Shown here one piece after another: positions 9,230 to 25,815 of a stretch of DNA of 64,000 bases; position 1 is the stretch's first letter, and each line of letters begins with the position of its first letter. This DNA comes from Tetrapisispora phaffii CBS 4417 (taxonomy: Eukaryota; Ascomycota; Saccharomycetes; Saccharomycetales; Saccharomycetaceae): positions 434,001-498,000 of the forward strand of contig NC_016520.1 in the NCBI RefSeq assembly GCF_000236905.1, written 5' to 3'. Both the position numbers and the translations under genes were made by a program. The notes under the pieces were generated by a model, which was not told the DNA's origin, ran no database searches, and saw only the letters and a program-made list of their open reading frames with translations.

Positions 9230-9325
9230 CTGGGACTGACACTTGGCACCCTTATAAAATTCACTTATTAAATAAATATAATGAATTAAAAAATAATGCC
9301 TTATTTCAATCGGAATTAAAAAATT

Positions 9326-9408
9326 TGAAGGATGCGAGGTTCGAACTCGCGCGGACACCGTCCAACAGATCTTAAGTCTGCCGCCTTAGACCACTCGGCC
9401 AACCCTCC
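9326..9408 (-). tRNA. tRNA-Leu(UAA)
   Basis: On the minus strand the sequence starts GGAGGGTTGGCCGAGTGG, has the anticodon loop CTTAAGA (anticodon TAA), a long class II variable arm and the T arm GAGTTCGAACCTC. It is nearly identical to S. cerevisiae tRNA-Leu(UAA). A and B boxes are intact, the length is 83 nt and no intron is present. LTR pieces begin 64 bp upstream of its 5' end, as is usual for Pol III-targeted retroelements. Confidence 0.96.
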
Positions 9409-9472
9409 ACCTATTTTATGCAATCTCGATAGTATTAACTCTTGTTATGTCACTAATTGAAATAAGGACATA

Positions 9473-9680
9473 ATCAGTCTGCCGTACGTGCTCAGTTCGA
9501 CTACGTCGTCTCGTTGGACAGAACGGTGGATTGAAATATGATGTATATATAAACCCCGGTAATCAATAGTAAATAATTCATTGATCCAGGTCCAAGAGAC
9601 CAGAGAGATTAATCTAATTATAGAGTATATAATTTAACTACATTTTAATATATTAAAGCAATGAATTCATCTATTGAGCA
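9473..9680 (+). mobile_element. LTR family 1, copy 1 (5' truncated)
   Basis: 208 bp matching the 3' part of the full 352-bp LTR at 9863-10214, from ATCAGTCTGCCG to ATCTATTGAGCA. It contains the LTR TATA region (TATATATAAACCCCGG) and an ATG 17 bp from the 3' end. It belongs to a slightly diverged subfamily (AATTCATCTATTGAGCA ending) shared with the fragment at 10492-10571. No primer-binding site is visible after its end. Confidence 0.8.
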
Positions 9681-9862
9681 CCATGAAATTGGACGAACAG
9701 GTAGACCAGTACCATTGATATCTACTTTTGCAATTTACGAGTTAATAACTTTGTGATTGATTTATGTCATGAAGGAAGCCTTGCTATTCTCGAATGAAAG
9801 AAATAAAAGGTGAAAGGAACTTACGAGTTGGAGCTTGATAGTCTGCTTTTTATACCTCAGTA

Positions 9863-10214
9863 TGTTGGAAATGAGACTGGTCGTATAAGTGACTATACGA
9901 TACCGGATATTACCTCTTTAGGAGACTATTGTTGCCAACCTGAAACAATAGTGCCTGCAAGAATGTAATAGCAGAATTTCTAATGCATAAATAGCACTGT
10001 AGAACCATCAGTCTGCCGTACATGTTCAATTCGACGACGTCGTCTCGTTGGACAGAACGGTAGATTGAAATATTATGTATATATAAACCCCGGTAATCAA
10101 TAGCTAATAATTCATTGATCCAGGTCCAAGAGACCAGAGAGGTTAATTTAGATATAAAGTATATAATCTAACAACATTTTAATATATTAAGGCAATGAAC
10201 ACAACTGTTGAGCA
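9863..10214 (+). mobile_element. LTR family 1, copy 2 (full length, 352 bp)
   Basis: It starts TGTTGGAAATGAG and ends ACTGTTGAGCA, the TG...CA termini of an LTR. It contains a small hairpin near the 5' end (TCGTATA...TATACGA), a TATA box (TATATATAAA) and, at the 3' end, ATG followed by codons for NTTVEH. In Ty1-type elements the LTR likewise encodes the first residues of Gag, so I infer a Ty1/copia-like family. The preceding 5 bp are CAGTA (9858-9862), which recur after copy 7 at 11579-11583. Confidence 0.88.
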
Positions 10215-10491
10215 CTCTGGTCTCTTGGACCTGGATCAATGAATTATTAGCTATTGATTACCGGGGTTTATATATACATAATATTTCAATCTACCGTTCT
10301 GTCCAACGAGACGACGTCGTCGAATTGAACATGTACGGCAGACTGATGGTTCTACAGTGCTATTTATGCATTAGAAATTCTGCTATTACATTCTTGCAGG
10401 CACTATTGTTTCAGGTTGGCAACAATAGTCTCCTAAAGAGGTAATATCTGGTATCGTATAGTCACTTATACGACCAGTCTCATTTCCAACA
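10215..10491 (-). mobile_element. LTR family 1, copy 3 (inverted, 3' truncated)
   Basis: 277 bp that are the reverse complement of 9863-10139, with only about one base different by eye. It begins immediately after copy 2 and ends with the inverted 5' terminus CATTTCCAACA. Together copies 2 and 3 form an almost perfect inverted repeat with a 75-bp loop (10140-10214). Confidence 0.85.
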
Positions 10492-10571
10492 CAGAGAGAT
10501 TAATCTAATTATAGAGTATATAATTTAACTACATTTTAATATATTAAAGCAATGAATTCAACTATTGAGCA
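10492..10571 (+). mobile_element. LTR family 1, copy 4 (3' fragment)
   Basis: 80 bp equal to the last part of the LTR, starting at CAGAGAG, which is where copy 3 breaks, and ending ACTATTGAGCA. It carries the subfamily differences of copy 1 rather than of copy 2. Copies 3 and 4 together add up to one LTR whose 5' three quarters is inverted. Confidence 0.75.
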
Positions 10572-10597
10572 GTATAGTCACTTATACGAACAGTNTC
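10572..10597 (-). mobile_element. LTR family 1, copy 5 (inverted 5' end, runs into assembly gap)
   Basis: GTATAGTCACTTATACGAAC and the following bases are the reverse complement of LTR positions about 11-36. The sequence then enters 20 Ns (10598-10617) in which the terminal TTTCCAACA would be expected. One further ambiguous base is at 10595. Confidence 0.6.
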
Positions 10598-10617
10598 NNN
10601 NNNNNNNNNNNNNNNNN
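10598..10617. other. Assembly gap (20 N)
   Basis: Twenty undetermined bases next to the inverted LTR duplication. They hide the 3' terminal bases of the initiator tRNA gene, its terminator and the end of an LTR fragment. The true length is unknown. Confidence 0.97.
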
Positions 10618-10686
10618 CGCCGCTCGGTTTCGATCCGAGGACATCAGGGTTATGAGCCCTGCGCGCTTCCACTGCGCCACGGCGCT
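10615..10686 (-). tRNA. Initiator tRNA-Met(CAU)
   Basis: The minus strand reads AGCGCCGTGGCGCAGTGG, then the anticodon loop around GGGCTCATAACCC and the T arm GGATCGAAACCG. It matches the eukaryotic initiator type: A1-U72, three G-C pairs below the anticodon loop, and GATCGAAA in the T loop, not elongator tRNA-Met. The last three bases, and any trailing sequence, fall in the N gap, so only 10618-10686 is seen. This is the tRNA used as reverse-transcription primer by Ty1-type elements. Confidence 0.93.
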
Positions 10687-10765
10687 TACTAATTTCGTAT
10701 CTTAGTTTTAGGTACATTCACTCAGATCAAATAGAGTTAATGTTACAGTGACACAATAGAATATT

Positions 10766-11216
10766 TGTTGGAAATGACACTGGTCGTATAAGTGACTATA
10801 CGATACCAGTGTGGAGTAACAAGCTTATGTTGGGTAGTTCCAACATCTAAGTTAGTGTCATTAGCCACTTCAGTTGCTCTAGTATAGTCCATCTTCTTTA
10901 TAGTTAAATAATCGATTGATCTTTTATTAGTGTAATTAAACTATTCTATATAGAGTTAGATGCCCTCCTTATATATGAGTTAATCTAGACAGTTGAATGA
11001 ACATGTGTACGTGTTCATTCATCCTCCTAGGCTCTTTAGTGCTGTATTGTACATCTGTGTTTATCACGTAGCCATTTACATTGTAGTGAGAAATTTTCAC
11101 CTACCACTTGGAAGATTGTTCTAGACCTTCTTTCCATTAGTAAGTGATCTATTAGTTCTGGACTCAAAGTGTCATAAACACTTAGTTCTGTCACATACAC
11201 TACAATAATTCTGACA
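10766..11216 (+). mobile_element. LTR family 2, copy A (451 bp, with 5-bp target duplication)
   Basis: It starts TGTTGGAAATGACACTGG and ends AATTCTGACA, flanked by ATATT on both sides (10761-10765 and 11217-11221). From 10810 the sequence (TGTGGAGTAACAAGC...) is homologous, over 407 bp without net length change, to the reverse complement of 13838-14244. The first 44 bp equal the 5' end of LTR family 1, so this copy is a mosaic. It lies 79 bp upstream of the 5' end of the initiator tRNA gene. The orientation given assumes TGTTGG is the 5' end. A non-LTR insertion is possible but TG...CA ends and 5-bp duplications favour an LTR. Confidence 0.72.
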
Positions 11217-11226
11217 ATATTCATGT

Positions 11227-11578
11227 TGTTGGAAACGTCACTGGTCGTATAAGTGACTATACGATACCAGATATTACCTCTATACGAGACTATTGTTGCA
11301 AACCTGAAACAATAGTGCCTGCAAGAATGTAATAGCAGAATTTCTAATGCATAAATAGCACTGTAGAACCATCAGTCTGCCGTACATGTTCAATTCGACG
11401 ACGTCGTCTCGTTGGACAGAACGGTAGATTGAAATATTATGTATATATAAACCCCGGTAATCAATAGCTAATAATTCATTGATCCAGGTCCAAGAGACGA
11501 GAGAGGTTAATTTAGATATAAAGTATATAATCTAACAACATTTTAATATATTAAGGCAATGAACACAACTATTGAGCA
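11227..11578 (+). mobile_element. LTR family 1, copy 7 (full length, 352 bp)
   Basis: It starts TGTTGGAAACGTCACTGG and ends ACTATTGAGCA. It has the same length as copy 2 with about nine differences by eye. The 5 bp after it are CAGTA, equal to the 5 bp before copy 2, while its own left flank is CATGT. The two copies have therefore exchanged flanks or once bounded a single insertion. Confidence 0.88.
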
Positions 11579-12486
11579 CAGTATTTGAATAAATATTTTT
11601 CAGCAAAAACTATCTGTTCAAATCTTTATTCCATGTCTCTCCCAGGGGATTTGTTTCCTAAGTTATATGTAACCATTCCTCCTGCACCCTACATCTAGAG
11701 AACAGATAACACTCCAATGAGAATAAATCTTACCACTGATGCCGCAATTGGTCTTCAATAGAGTAAGTGCCGCTGTTTAACTGCTAGTAGCATATATCCT
11801 AGCTGATGTTTCTATTGAAATATATATAAACGTACATTCATAGTTAACCATCAACAACCCGACTAATTGCTCATAATAACTATTACAAGCTTCCACACTA
11901 ATTATCTTATGTCTTCCCAATACTTCAGTTACCATTTTAACAGTTTCCAGGAAGCAAATTTTTAATCTATGGCAACATTATATGTTGATGTAAAGAGTCC
12001 ATACTGCACAAAATAACAGTTAAATACAAACATTATCCATTAGCATACCACCAGTTGACGTCTAGTCTTCTGCTTAGATCTCTAACTAAACCATATAAAC
12101 TATCTATAACTGAAACTGAAACATAAACCCTTTTATGTGTTTCTTTCTCAATAATGCAGGAATACTATTGTTGCGCCCTTATCCTTTACAGCCATAACTA
12201 CATGTTACTGGTCAGTTCCATCTTTCTTCTCCGCACAAGATATAGCAGAACTACGCTTATCGTTAATATTACATGCTTAAACTTTTGATATTTTCAATGC
12301 AGTTGCAACCAATTTTGTTGGCAACCATTTCGAATTCGAACAGTAACATGGCGATTGCAGTTATAAACGTTACTTCTAGTGTGCTTTCTTCCAAATTGAC
12401 CTTATATAAAGACATGGTTTGCTAAGCACAACAACATTTTCTAAGTCGTGAACGCAGGTCGACAAGGTACATTCTGAGAGTCGACA
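11579..12486. other. Region between LTRs and the orphan frame; possible decayed coding sequence on the minus strand
   Basis: No intact gene. On the minus strand between about 11,860 and 12,210 there are stretches that look protein-coding but are broken by stops, for example HVVMAVKDKGATIVFLHY and, later, DSLYGLVRDLSRRLDVNWW. They could be remains of a retroelement or of a lost gene; I cannot assign a family. The end of the stretch holds the TATA box of the frame at 12487. Confidence 0.35.
12403..12410 (+). promoter_or_regulatory. TATA box before the orphan frame
   Basis: TATATAAA, 76 bp before the ATG at 12487, at a usual spacing for a regulated yeast gene. Confidence 0.4.
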
Positions 12487-12837
12487 ATGCTAAATTTATT
12501 CAAAAAGCAGGAGTATAGAGATATAGAGGATGGGAAAGCTGATGAGACTACTGCTGACGAATTTAAAGCTCTCAGCCACAAAGATGCACTGCGCTGGAGT
12601 CTTGGCAGTGGTCTTTACTTTGCTGTCTTAGCGATTACTTTCCTTTGCGATGACAGAACGACTACCACTAGGCGGATGATAGCCTATTTGATCGATAGCG
12701 TTGCTGGCGCAACTTTTTCATACCAGCAGTACATATACTTGACTACTGGAACACAGGCCATAAACAGGTATCTAGTTTTGTATCTCATACACATGTGTGC
12801 TTTGATTATCGCAAGACTCCATGTCTATTATCATTGA
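12487..12837 (+). CDS. Orphan small membrane protein, function unknown
   Basis: 116 residues that I do not recognise. The first 36 are hydrophilic and charged (MLNLFKKQEYRDIEDGKADE). Three hydrophobic segments follow, at about 37-54 (WSLGSGLYFAVLAITFLC), 64-85 and 94-114. A TATA box lies upstream. Codon choice differs from the neighbours: CTG, CGC, CGG, GCG and GGC appear in a genome that otherwise prefers A/T-ending codons. That composition, and its place between LTR elements, suggests a lineage-specific or acquired gene, but this is inference. It could also be a remnant of a longer gene. It shows no resemblance to Gag or Pol that I can see. Confidence 0.45.
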   Translation: MLNLFKKQEYRDIEDGKADETTADEFKALSHKDALRWSLGSGLYFAVLAITFLCDDRTTTTRRMIAYLIDSVAGATFSYQQYIYLTTGTQAINRYLVLYLIHMCALIIARLHVYYH

Positions 12838-13832
12838 AAAATGGAAGATTGGAGAGACTGACCATGATCTGAGCACAAGTATATAAGATGAAGGCATGTA
12901 GCAGAGCACCTATAGCTTTATGTACTTTACAATATTAGATTTATATATTCAATCATATACAAGAGGCCCATAACTGTTTGCAGAATGCTGCTCTTTTATT
13001 TTAGTGTAATGAACTAATGGCTGGAAGCTAACAACAACGACGGCAAACTATAACGGTTTTCAAAAATGAAAATATATACCACTTGTGCAGTCGTTTTGTT
13101 TACGAGGCTCCTTTACTGAGCAGAGAAGAGTATATTGATCAGTATAGGAGGGCTGTTTCAGAAAAATACTAAACCAATGTACCTGATCAGTCGTTAGGAA
13201 ACAGTACGAGATCCATTGGTGTCTATTGCACACTCTGTCACCACAACTGTAATAAATATCTATGGAACAATTCTCAAAGCTCTGGATACAATTATAGAAT
13301 ACATATTTCTTTCAAAAATCTTTAAAGTTCTCTTTCTAATGTAAAAGATGTCACCAATTTCATTAAATACTGTTCATCATATACACATTAAGTACCACCA
13401 GAAAGTAACTCCTTGCATATTGGAAACCATGGAAATTACTATTTCCTTCAGAAACTTTATCATTCTGCCATTTATTTACCAGTTTTACAGTTGCTATTGA
13501 GGAGATGGGATACATCTTAATAAAATAAGTCTGGCATTTCCTCATGAATGTAGTTCATTATCCAGCGGTAAAAATATACACTCAATTAAAGTTGGGCATA
13601 GAACTGCTTTTGCAGCAAAAAGTTGTGCTATTCAAATTATCTATGAGCAGCAACTTTGGCCAAATATTAAAGAAGGTTACATCTGAAGATATTGTTACTT
13701 GTAGATTGGAACTGAACTTCTACCAGGACTGTGGTACTAATTTGATTGATATCATAATCGTAAGCGTGTCAAGATAAACATTTCGTAAAATCCTGATAGG
13801 ACGCAAACAGTCAGAGTATGTGATACAAAACG
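12838..13832. other. AT-rich region without a recognised gene, possible coding relics
   Basis: Two small frames (13363-13545 minus and 13544-13777 plus) abut each other but have no recognisable motifs. The stretch may be degenerate retroelement or gene sequence. The rest holds nothing I can identify. Confidence 0.35.
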
Positions 13833-13837
13833 CCAAC

Positions 13838-14271
13838 TGTCAGGATTATTGTAGTATGTTACAGAACTAAGTGTTTATGACACTTTGATTTCAGAACCAA
13901 TTGATCACTTACTAATTGAATAGGAGGTTCTAGAACACTCTTCCAAATGATAGATGAAAAATTTTCACTACAATGTAAATGGCTGCGTGATAAACACAGA
14001 TGTACAATACAGCATTAAAGATCTTTGGAGAATGACTGAACACGCTCACATGTTCATTCAACTATCAGATAAACTCATATATAAGGAGGACATCTAAATT
14101 CTATATGGAATTGTTTAAATATACTAATAAAAGAGCAATCGTTTATTCAACTATTACGAATATGGACTACTCGAAAGCAACTAAAGTGACTAATGACACT
14201 AAATTAGAAGTTGGTTCTAACTAACATAAGCTTGTTTCTCCACAAATTCAACTATTGAGCAATTTCCAACA
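13838..14271 (-). mobile_element. LTR family 2, copy B (434 bp, with 5-bp target duplication)
   Basis: Read on the minus strand it starts TGTTGGAAAT and ends CTGACA, flanked by CCAAC at 13833-13837 and 14272-14276. Positions 13838-14244 are homologous to copy A. Next to its 5' end, 17 bp (14245-14261) equal the 3' end of LTR family 1 in inverted orientation. The TGTTGG end is 81 bp upstream of the tRNA-Ala 5' end, the same arrangement as copy A and initiator tRNA. Confidence 0.72.
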
Positions 14272-14352
14272 CCAACACTCATTTATATTACATTCCTGTC
14301 ACAAATCTGTTTATTGTGATACCAATATTTGACTTTCGAGCCAGTAAATAAT

Positions 14353-14425
14353 GGGCATGTGGCGTAGTTGGTAGCGCGCTCCCTTAGCATGGGAGAGGTC
14401 TTCGGTTCGACTCCGGACTTTTCCA
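14353..14425 (+). tRNA. tRNA-Ala(AGC), with one unusual acceptor mismatch
   Basis: GGGCATGTGGCGTAGTTGG begins the gene; the anticodon loop is TTAGCAT (anticodon AGC) and the T arm TTCGGTTCGACTCCGGA. A T run follows as terminator. The alanine identity pair G3-U70 is kept. Compared with the S. cerevisiae gene as I recall it, 5-68 has changed in a compensated way (A-U), but 4-69 is now C opposite U, an extra mismatch in the acceptor stem. It may be functional or starting to decay. Confidence 0.88.
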
Positions 14426-14465
14426 TTTTTTTTGCTTATAACCATTGAATGTATTTATTTCAACA

Positions 14466-25428: not shown

Positions 25429-25662
25429 GATTCAATATTTTAACTTTGAACTTTACGTAACTAACTATTAATGTTTTGATGAACAAGAAGAGCAAGAATA
25501 AAAATAACTTTACTGTATAATGCAGATATATATTAGTGAGATACTAGGAGCTTAAATATTAATATAATTGATATTGTTTATGTCTTGTAAACTTGACGTC
25601 GTGTTTTCTTCTTTAATGACACAAAATGTCACTAAAAAAATTAAAACAAAACAAAAAAAGGA

Positions 25663-25734
25663 AGGTCCTACCCGGATTCGAACCGGGGTTGGTCGGATCA
25701 AAACCGACAGTGATAACCACTACACTATAGGACC
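25663..25734 (-). tRNA. tRNA-Gln(UUG)
   Basis: The minus strand reads GGTCCTATAGTGTAGTGG, the anticodon loop is TTTTGAT (anticodon TTG), and the T arm is CCGGTTCGAATCCGG; 72 nt with no intron. The anticodon stem GTCGG/CCGAC is fully paired. A run of Ts follows on the minus strand as terminator (25652-25660). No LTR is visible beside this gene. Confidence 0.96.
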
Positions 25735-25815
25735 CTAAAATTTGGAAGAAAATAGTATATTCATGTTGATATCACCGGAGATTTTGAATAAGAAACTATC
25801 CGAACCATAATACCG

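What the first reader, a model, noticed from the sequence alone, without database searches (positions are those of the whole stretch)
10766..14271. Second LTR family inserted about 80 bp upstream of two tRNA genes in the same relative orientation
Two homologous insertions (10766-11216 and 13838-14271) each have a 5-bp target duplication, ATATT and CCAAC. Each puts its TGTTGG end next to a tRNA gene: 79 bp from initiator tRNA-Met and 81 bp from tRNA-Ala. Opposite strands of the tRNAs are matched by opposite strands of the insertions. This suggests position- and orientation-controlled integration at Pol III genes by an element I cannot match to a named Ty family.
Basis: partly seen in the sequence, partly recalled or inferred. 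Interest (0 to 1): 0.75.

Follow-up and report, generated by a model that had tools for sequence, protein, structure and literature searches.

The report
Yeast retrotransposon remnants beside tRNA genes
The two insertions are leftover ends of a yeast retrotransposon (a distant cousin of baker's-yeast Ty4) sitting among broken pieces of a second, Ty1-like one; both families land at set distances in front of tRNA genes, and only the Ty1-like one clearly prefers one direction.

Summary
Window: Tetrapisispora phaffii CBS 4417. The repeated unit is a 406-407 bp solo LTR ("W") at 10810-11216(-) and 13838-14244(+). The TGTTGG ends belong to scraps of another LTR ("D"), and ATATT is not W's target duplication: a paralogue of copy 1 keeps W's true one, ACCAG. 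W is of the Ty4/Tkp4 lineage, D of the Ty1 lineage. Of 76 W LTRs scored, 63 lie within 1 kb upstream of a known tRNA gene and 2 downstream, in two distance peaks (medians 101 and 180 bp; none at 127-150), in random orientation (33 same, 30 opposite). D peaks at 78-96 bp, TGTTGG end towards the tRNA (26:5 within 320 bp; 18:4 among uninterrupted copies, p=0.004). The two peaks match those published for Ty1/Ty2/Ty4. W's integrase has a motif with the spacing of the Ty1 Pol III tether; D's does not. New members of a known kind; D's bias is the least expected part.

The parts
10810..11216 (-). Solo LTR of the Ty4/Tkp4-lineage element W (copy 1), sense strand -, 122 bp upstream of tRNA-iMet
   Evidence: sense strand from the ORF of full-length copy L040
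13838..14244 (+). Solo LTR of W (copy 2), sense strand +, 107 bp upstream of tRNA-Ala, 86% identical to copy 1
10766..10809 (+). First 44 bp of a Ty1-lineage LTR (D); W copy 1 was inserted behind D base 44
   Evidence: same nest with intact ACCAG duplication in L009
14245..14261 (+). 17-bp scrap matching the 3' end of D (AATTCAACTATTGAGCA)
   Evidence: read by eye against the D copies
14262..14271 (-). 10-bp scrap matching the inverted 5' end of D (ATTTCCAACA)
   Evidence: read by eye
10614..10687 (-). tRNA-iMet (CAT); its 3' end touches the run of N
14352..14426 (+). tRNA-Ala (AGC)
11227..11579 (+). Full D LTR upstream of W copy 1
9863..10597 (.). Nest of D pieces: 9863-10215 (+), 10215-10491 (-), 10492-10571 (+), 10572-10597 (-); 99.3% identical over 735 bp to C15:102705-103439
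9473..9681 (+). 3' part of a further D LTR, 63 bp upstream of tRNA-Leu (9325-9409, -)
10598..10617 (.). Run of 20 N (probably an assembly gap)

Best explanation
The two features are old solo LTRs of a Ty1/copia retrotransposon of the Ty4/Tkp4 lineage (W) in Tetrapisispora phaffii, lying among remnants of a Ty1-lineage LTR family (D). Shown: each family has more than 100 LTR ends in the genome, and copies with a known tRNA gene nearby lie overwhelmingly upstream of it. W insertion distances form two peaks 79 bp apart, in either orientation; D peaks at 78-96 bp with its 5' LTR end towards the tRNA. Inferred: as for S. cerevisiae Ty1, the integrase is tethered to Pol III at the tRNA gene and the cDNA is joined at two exposed sites of the first upstream nucleosome; LTR-LTR recombination then leaves solo LTRs, and repeated hits on the same target produce nests. 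For W the likely tether is a short C-terminal integrase motif (LFLKEFASI) with the spacing of the Ty1 residues that contact subunit AC40. D uses a diverged form of this tether or another contact, and its integration complex (or later selection) favours one orientation.
For: LTR boundaries, TGT..ACA ends and adjoining 5-bp duplications. Family: integrase before RT, Pfam RVT_2/rve; RT 61% identical to Tkp4; RT tree, W with Tkp4 at 98/97 and D in the Ty1-type clade at 100/99 (22 of 23 rows given, P0013 had no anchor); D integrase matches PDB 7z0h 'Integrase' at E=3e-92 (that this is Ty1 integrase is by recall) and Pfam TYA. Upstream preference: W 63 up, 2 down, 11 of 76 with no known tRNA within 1 kb; in a sample of 63 tRNA genes found without regard to LTRs, 29 have a listed W or D terminus within 300 bp upstream and 1 downstream, where about 0.5% per family and side is expected. 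Two peaks: 25 W at 75-126 bp, 19 at 151-199, none at 127-150; periodicity p 0.0004 and 0.0002 against smoothed resampling. D orientation: 16:2 at 60-100 bp, 18:4 uninterrupted copies. Tether motif: 11 of 17 scorable Ty4-lineage rows (W counted twice; 6 of 23 rows not scorable) against 0.15 expected from shuffles. Published pattern: two integration peaks on the first nucleosome for Ty1, Ty2 and Ty4 (PMC10347736, abstract and passages).
Against: No nucleosome map of T. phaffii was available; nucleosome placement is inferred from spacing alone. The best-fitting period was 91.5 bp, not 70-80, although the peak medians lie 79 bp apart. The motif pattern was chosen after looking at seven Ty4-lineage sequences, so its shuffle test is not blind, and 6 of the 17 scorable rows lack it. 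The one D copy examined lacks the motif yet D is targeted. Neither C-terminal integrase stretch matched the Ty1 integrase chain in the PDB search. Beyond 100 bp D's bias is weak or absent, by method (5:6:3), and the change with distance is p=0.038 but p=0.63.
Confidence: 0.82

Rival explanations
1. One reading: one new LTR family with TGTTGG ends, placed about 80 bp from tRNA genes in one controlled orientation.
For: Both window copies show the arrangement. D, which owns the TGTTGG end, does peak at 78-96 bp in one orientation.
Against: The 44- and 27-bp TGTTGG extensions are not part of the repeated unit and differ from each other. The paralogue has ACCAG on both sides of W. W orientation is 33:30.
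Confidence: 0.03
2. D's orientation bias comes from selection after integration: D in the tRNA's orientation transcribes into the tRNA gene and is lost, opposite copies persist.
For: D's coding start lies in the LTR (ORF begins MNTTIEH), so D transcription runs out of the LTR towards its 3' end. D copies have had time to diverge: the full copies listed are 90-99% identical to the window copy. In one search the bias does not differ significantly with distance (p=0.63), which selection on any nearby copy would allow.
Against: W, as dense and in the same places, shows no bias (33:30). In one search the bias is confined to the nearest class (13:2 up to 100 bp, 5:6 beyond, p=0.038).
Confidence: 0.4
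3. Both LTRs share one place because solo LTRs are merely tolerated near tRNA genes, with no targeting.
For: Regions upstream of tRNA genes are thought to be gene-poor (general knowledge, not tested here).
Against: 63 upstream against 2 downstream and an empty 127-150 bp stretch between peaks are not expected from tolerance alone.
Confidence: 0.03
4. The ATATT and CCAAC repeats mark composite D+W units that integrated as one piece (chimeric cDNA).
For: In both window copies W's sense 3' end is followed by D sequence and then by a 5-mer equal to the one at W's other end.
Against: The paralogue L009 shows W inserted in a D LTR that continues on both sides, with its own ACCAG duplication, so copy 1 looks like a nested insertion that later lost D sequence. 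Copy 2's CCAAC equals part of D's own end (TTTCCAACA), and full-length W in L040 is duplicated at CCAAC at a D end. How the rest of D was lost is not resolved.
Confidence: 0.08

Closest known systems
Tkp4 of Vanderwaltozyma polyspora; Ty4 of Saccharomyces
   Same: W: integrase before RT, RT 61% (Tkp4, P0012) and 48% (S. kudriavzevii SKDI_01G0670, taken as Ty4-like by recall) identical, one clade at 98/97; 5-bp duplications; tRNA-upstream location and two-peak pattern as published for Ty4 (PMC10347736); tether-like motif.
   Different: LTR 406 bp against 371 for Ty4 (PMC7175516 passage). The predicted protein P0001 runs from an N-terminal, presumably gag, region through protease, integrase and RT in one frame, whereas Ty4 has pol in the +1 frame. 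The primer site fits tRNA-Gln(UUG), 17 of 18 bases; Ty4's primer is another tRNA by recall only.
Ty1/Ty2 of Saccharomyces; Tkp1 of V. polyspora
   Same: D: TYA and integrase matches, RT in the clade of S. cerevisiae and S. mikatae rows at 100/99, beside Tkp1 (86/83, below the tool's mark for firm support), gag start codon inside the LTR and an iMet-type primer site, 12 of the first 13 bases, tRNA-upstream location.
   Different: The one D copy examined reads gag through RT in one frame and lacks the Ty1 tether pattern. I found no statement of an orientation bias for Ty1 at tRNA genes in the passages read; PMC3545840's figure 3A plots the two orientations apart, but figures are not held.
TRE5 of Dictyostelium
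   Same: [quoted passage not shown] D behaves similarly.
   Different: TRE5 is a non-LTR element; no relationship.

Membership tests
Ty4/Tkp4 lineage (W) | RT groups with Tkp4 and its relatives, apart from the Ty1 group | tested here: met
   98/97 support; 61% to Tkp4, 30% to a row named Ty2 (P0042)
Ty4/Tkp4 lineage (W) | Copia order: integrase before reverse transcriptase | tested here: met
   rve 552-651, RVT_2 1061-1272
Ty4/Tkp4 lineage (W) | Paired LTRs with TG..CA ends and 5-bp target duplication | tested here: met
   (36 of 76 LTRs); full-length L040 flanked by CCAAC, LTR pair 396 of 408 columns identical
S. cerevisiae Ty4 itself (W) | pol in the +1 frame relative to gag | tested here: not met
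   P0001, 1509 aa, one reading frame; gag assigned by position only. W is therefore filed in the lineage, not as Ty4
Ty1/Ty2 lineage (D) | RT in the Ty1 clade; TYA capsid; Ty1-like integrase | tested here: met
Ty1/Ty2 lineage (D) | Gag start in the LTR and iMet primer site at the LTR edge | tested here: met
   (12 of 13 bases, one copy); that Ty1 has these is recalled
S. cerevisiae Ty1 itself (D) | pol in the +1 frame relative to gag | tested here: not met
   L017 copy: 1365 aa in one frame with TYA, protease-type, integrase and RT matches; one copy only. D is filed in the lineage, not as Ty1
Ty1-type Pol III tether | Residues spaced W..K.M.SL near the integrase C-terminus that bind AC40 | tested here: inconclusive
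   W has LFLKEFASI; D has none by the pattern. Binding not testable here
Ty1-type nucleosome targeting | Two integration peaks about 70-80 bp apart on the first nucleosome upstream of Pol III genes | tested here: inconclusive
   W peak medians 101 and 180 bp; no nucleosome map available
Ty3-type targeting | Insertion within a few bases of the Pol III start | tested here: not met
   Nearest W at 75 bp, nearest D at 52-54 bp

The most novel reading that the evidence does not exclude
In T. phaffii two copia families share the same target (the first nucleosome upstream of tRNA genes), but only the Ty1-lineage D integrates in a preferred orientation, its 5' LTR end 78-96 bp from the tRNA. Its integration complex would then be held in one polarity on the nucleosome, by a tether that has lost the canonical Ty1 AC40-binding residues. 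The pair would be a natural experiment separating distance control from polarity control.
Probability: 0.35. Interest if true: 0.6.

Novelty: new member of a known kind. Interest (0 to 1): 0.4.

Why it matters
It extends the two-peak tRNA targeting known for Ty1, Ty2 and Ty4 of S. cerevisiae to a yeast of another genus, and ties it to a short integrase motif found in many rows of the Ty4 lineage. If D's orientation bias is set at integration, the polarity of the integration complex on the nucleosome becomes testable by comparing D with W, which share the target but not the bias. It also shows how nested LTRs can make apparent target duplications and an apparent family that do not exist.

Tried and rejected
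Rejected: a single new family with TGTTGG ends; orientation control of W (33:30; 15:16 among upstream copies with an intact duplication); a link between W orientation and distance class (p=0.048 on 38 copies within 210 bp; p=0.13 on 44); chimeric-cDNA insertion for copy 1. Led nowhere: PDB comparison of the integrase C-termini (one unrelated match at E=0.3; none); a whole-length protein search with W (its own species, then distant plant and other rows); paper searches for T. phaffii retrotransposons (8 papers, 7 listed, none on its elements by title; none), for Tkp4 or Vanderwaltozyma (233 papers, 10 listed, none on the element by title) and for Ty1 orientation at tRNA genes (1 and 2 papers; passages of both papers read, without such a statement). 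Not resolved: how D bases 45-352 were lost beside W copy 1, and the origin of the D scraps beside copy 2.

Limits: tRNA positions are incomplete (114 known: ARAGORN on the fetched loci plus a capped Rfam search that listed 63). Pattern lists are cut: I used 100 of 115 D 5' ends and 100 of 142 D 3' ends, 90 of 158 W 3' ends (the exact ones) and 100 of 134 W 5' ends. The D test used a null of 0.554 for that truncation. The reversed-pattern control gave 16 for the D 3' pattern and 3 for the D 5' pattern, so some D 3' matches are chance. The two iMet loci are paralogues; counting them once leaves 15:2 and 25:5. The D counts share copies and are not independent. The 76 W copies come from loci chosen by similarity, not by tRNA, and include LTRs of longer elements. 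Of the 49 uninterrupted D LTRs, 26 had no known tRNA within 1 kb.
Full report
WHAT IS THERE. The window lies in Tetrapisispora phaffii CBS 4417: the W protein found by search is TPHA_0I02520 on a contig of 740,259 bases, the length of contig C9 of the window's genome. The repeated unit, W, is 10810-11216 and 13838-14244, 86% identical. The last 27 bp of copy 2 read as two D scraps.

DUPLICATIONS. Of 76 full-length W LTRs in the fetched loci, 36 have an exact 5-bp repeat directly at TGT..ACA. In a paralogous iMet locus on C15 (L009; the 78-bp tRNA-to-D spacer is identical) W lies at the same base of D between two ACCAG copies and D continues beyond. The window copy keeps only one ACCAG; ATATT is therefore not W's duplication. 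Copy 2 lacks a repeat at W's ends; CCAAC occurs in D's own end, and the full-length W in L040 is duplicated at CCAAC at such an end.

THE ELEMENTS. The site after the 5' LTR, TGGAGGTCTTACCCGGAT, matches the 3' end of tRNA-Gln(UUG) at 17 of 18 bases. The 30 bases after the 5' LTR were the same in the five 5' LTRs and the 15 bases before the 3' LTR the same in the five 3' LTRs seen; these LTRs had been picked by the first 8 and the last 11 of those bases, so only the rest is evidence. RT places W with Tkp4 and D in a clade with Tkp1 and Saccharomyces Ty1-type rows; D's reading frame is in L017.

WHERE W LANDS. Of 76 W LTRs, 63 lie within 1 kb upstream of a known tRNA gene, 2 downstream, and 11 have none known within 1 kb; of these 11, 5 are marked as LTRs of longer elements and 3 (L069, L070, L073) come from loci fetched with short flanks. 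Upstream distances: 25 at 75-126 bp (median 101), none at 127-150, 19 at 151-199 (median 180), 19 farther (medians counted by me from the list). Periodicity exceeds smoothed resampling (p 0.0004 and 0.0002 for two bandwidths, 50 distances under 350 bp; best period 91.5 bp). Orientation is 33 same, 30 opposite (p=0.80).

WHERE D LANDS. With listed D termini and 114 known tRNA genes, the nearest facing terminus within 320 bp is D's 5' end in 26 and its 3' end in 5; at 60-100 bp 16 and 2 (p=0.0037 with the truncation-corrected null), at 100-320 bp 10 and 3, the two classes not differing significantly (p=0.63). In the 63 tRNA genes found without regard to LTRs, 15 and 2 (p=0.006 with the same null). 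A second method (BLAST segments) gives 13:2 up to 100 bp and 5:6 beyond (p=0.038 between classes). A third (49 uninterrupted D LTRs, 23 with a known tRNA within 1 kb, 22 of them upstream of it) gives 18 opposite and 4 same, p=0.004. The three methods share copies.

HOW IT PROBABLY WORKS. Published work reports an 80-bp periodicity and two Ty1 hotspots per nucleosome upstream of Pol III genes (PMC3545840, abstract passage and part 1 of section 3), the two-peak pattern also for Ty2 and Ty4 (PMC10347736, abstract and passages), and a C-terminal Ty1 integrase segment binding Pol III subunit AC40 through residues including W614, K617, M619, S621 and L622, the segment being conserved in Ty2 and Ty4 (PMC10050235, abstract and passages). 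W's integrase has LFLKEFASI in that spacing just before a basic stretch; the pattern is found in 11 of 17 scorable Ty4-lineage rows (W counted twice; 6 of 23 rows not scorable) against 0.15 expected from shuffles, in 7 of 29 scorable Ty1-lineage rows (7 of 36 not scorable) against 0.21, and not in D. A wider scan gave 14 of 22 Ty4-lineage rows. The pattern was drawn up after seeing seven Ty4-lineage rows. Thus W most likely uses a Ty1-like tether; what holds D, and why D is polarised, is open.

Position control: supported for both families. Orientation control: not for W, yes for D near the gene. New family: no; new members of the Ty4/Tkp4 and Ty1 lineages. None of my paper searches listed a paper on these T. 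phaffii elements by title, and I saw no statement on Ty1 orientation bias at tRNA genes in what I read; the library holds only openly licensed papers.

PAPERS SEEN. PMC5911963, PMC7888664, PMC7175516, PMC11739139, PMC5371812 and PMC10218751: passages only. PMC10050235 and PMC10347736: passages including abstract text. PMC3545840: passages and part 1 of section 3. Others: search listings only.

Noticed in passing
10598-10617; 9863-10597: A run of 20 N touches the iMet gene, and the D nest next to it is 99.3% identical over 735 bp to C15:102705-103439 beside a tRNA-Gly (L064), itself next to a run of N; misassembly or recent exchange is possible.
   Followed up: partly
L040 7795-7835 (W 5' LTR edge); window 25660-25735: W's primer site fits tRNA-Gln(UUG), a copy of which lies in the window, at 17 of 18 bases; an unexpected primer for a Ty4-lineage element (Ty4's own primer recalled as another tRNA).
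   Followed up: partly
P0001; L017 2617-6714: Both T. phaffii elements read from the gag region into pol in one frame, without the +1 shift described for Ty1-Ty4.
   Followed up: no
L015, L039, L040: W is flanked by GTTGG/CCAAC repeats in three loci; in L015 and L040 this lies at the outer bases of a D LTR, so D ends near tRNA genes may be repeated targets of W.
   Followed up: no
C8:37813-38589, C10:475972-476451, C1:762439-762981: Full W LTRs lie directly beside partial W LTRs on the same strand, without spacer.
   Followed up: no
9863-10571: The D nest can be explained by one D inserted inverted into another at D bases 273-277 (5-bp overlap) followed by inversion between the inverted arms.
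   Followed up: partly
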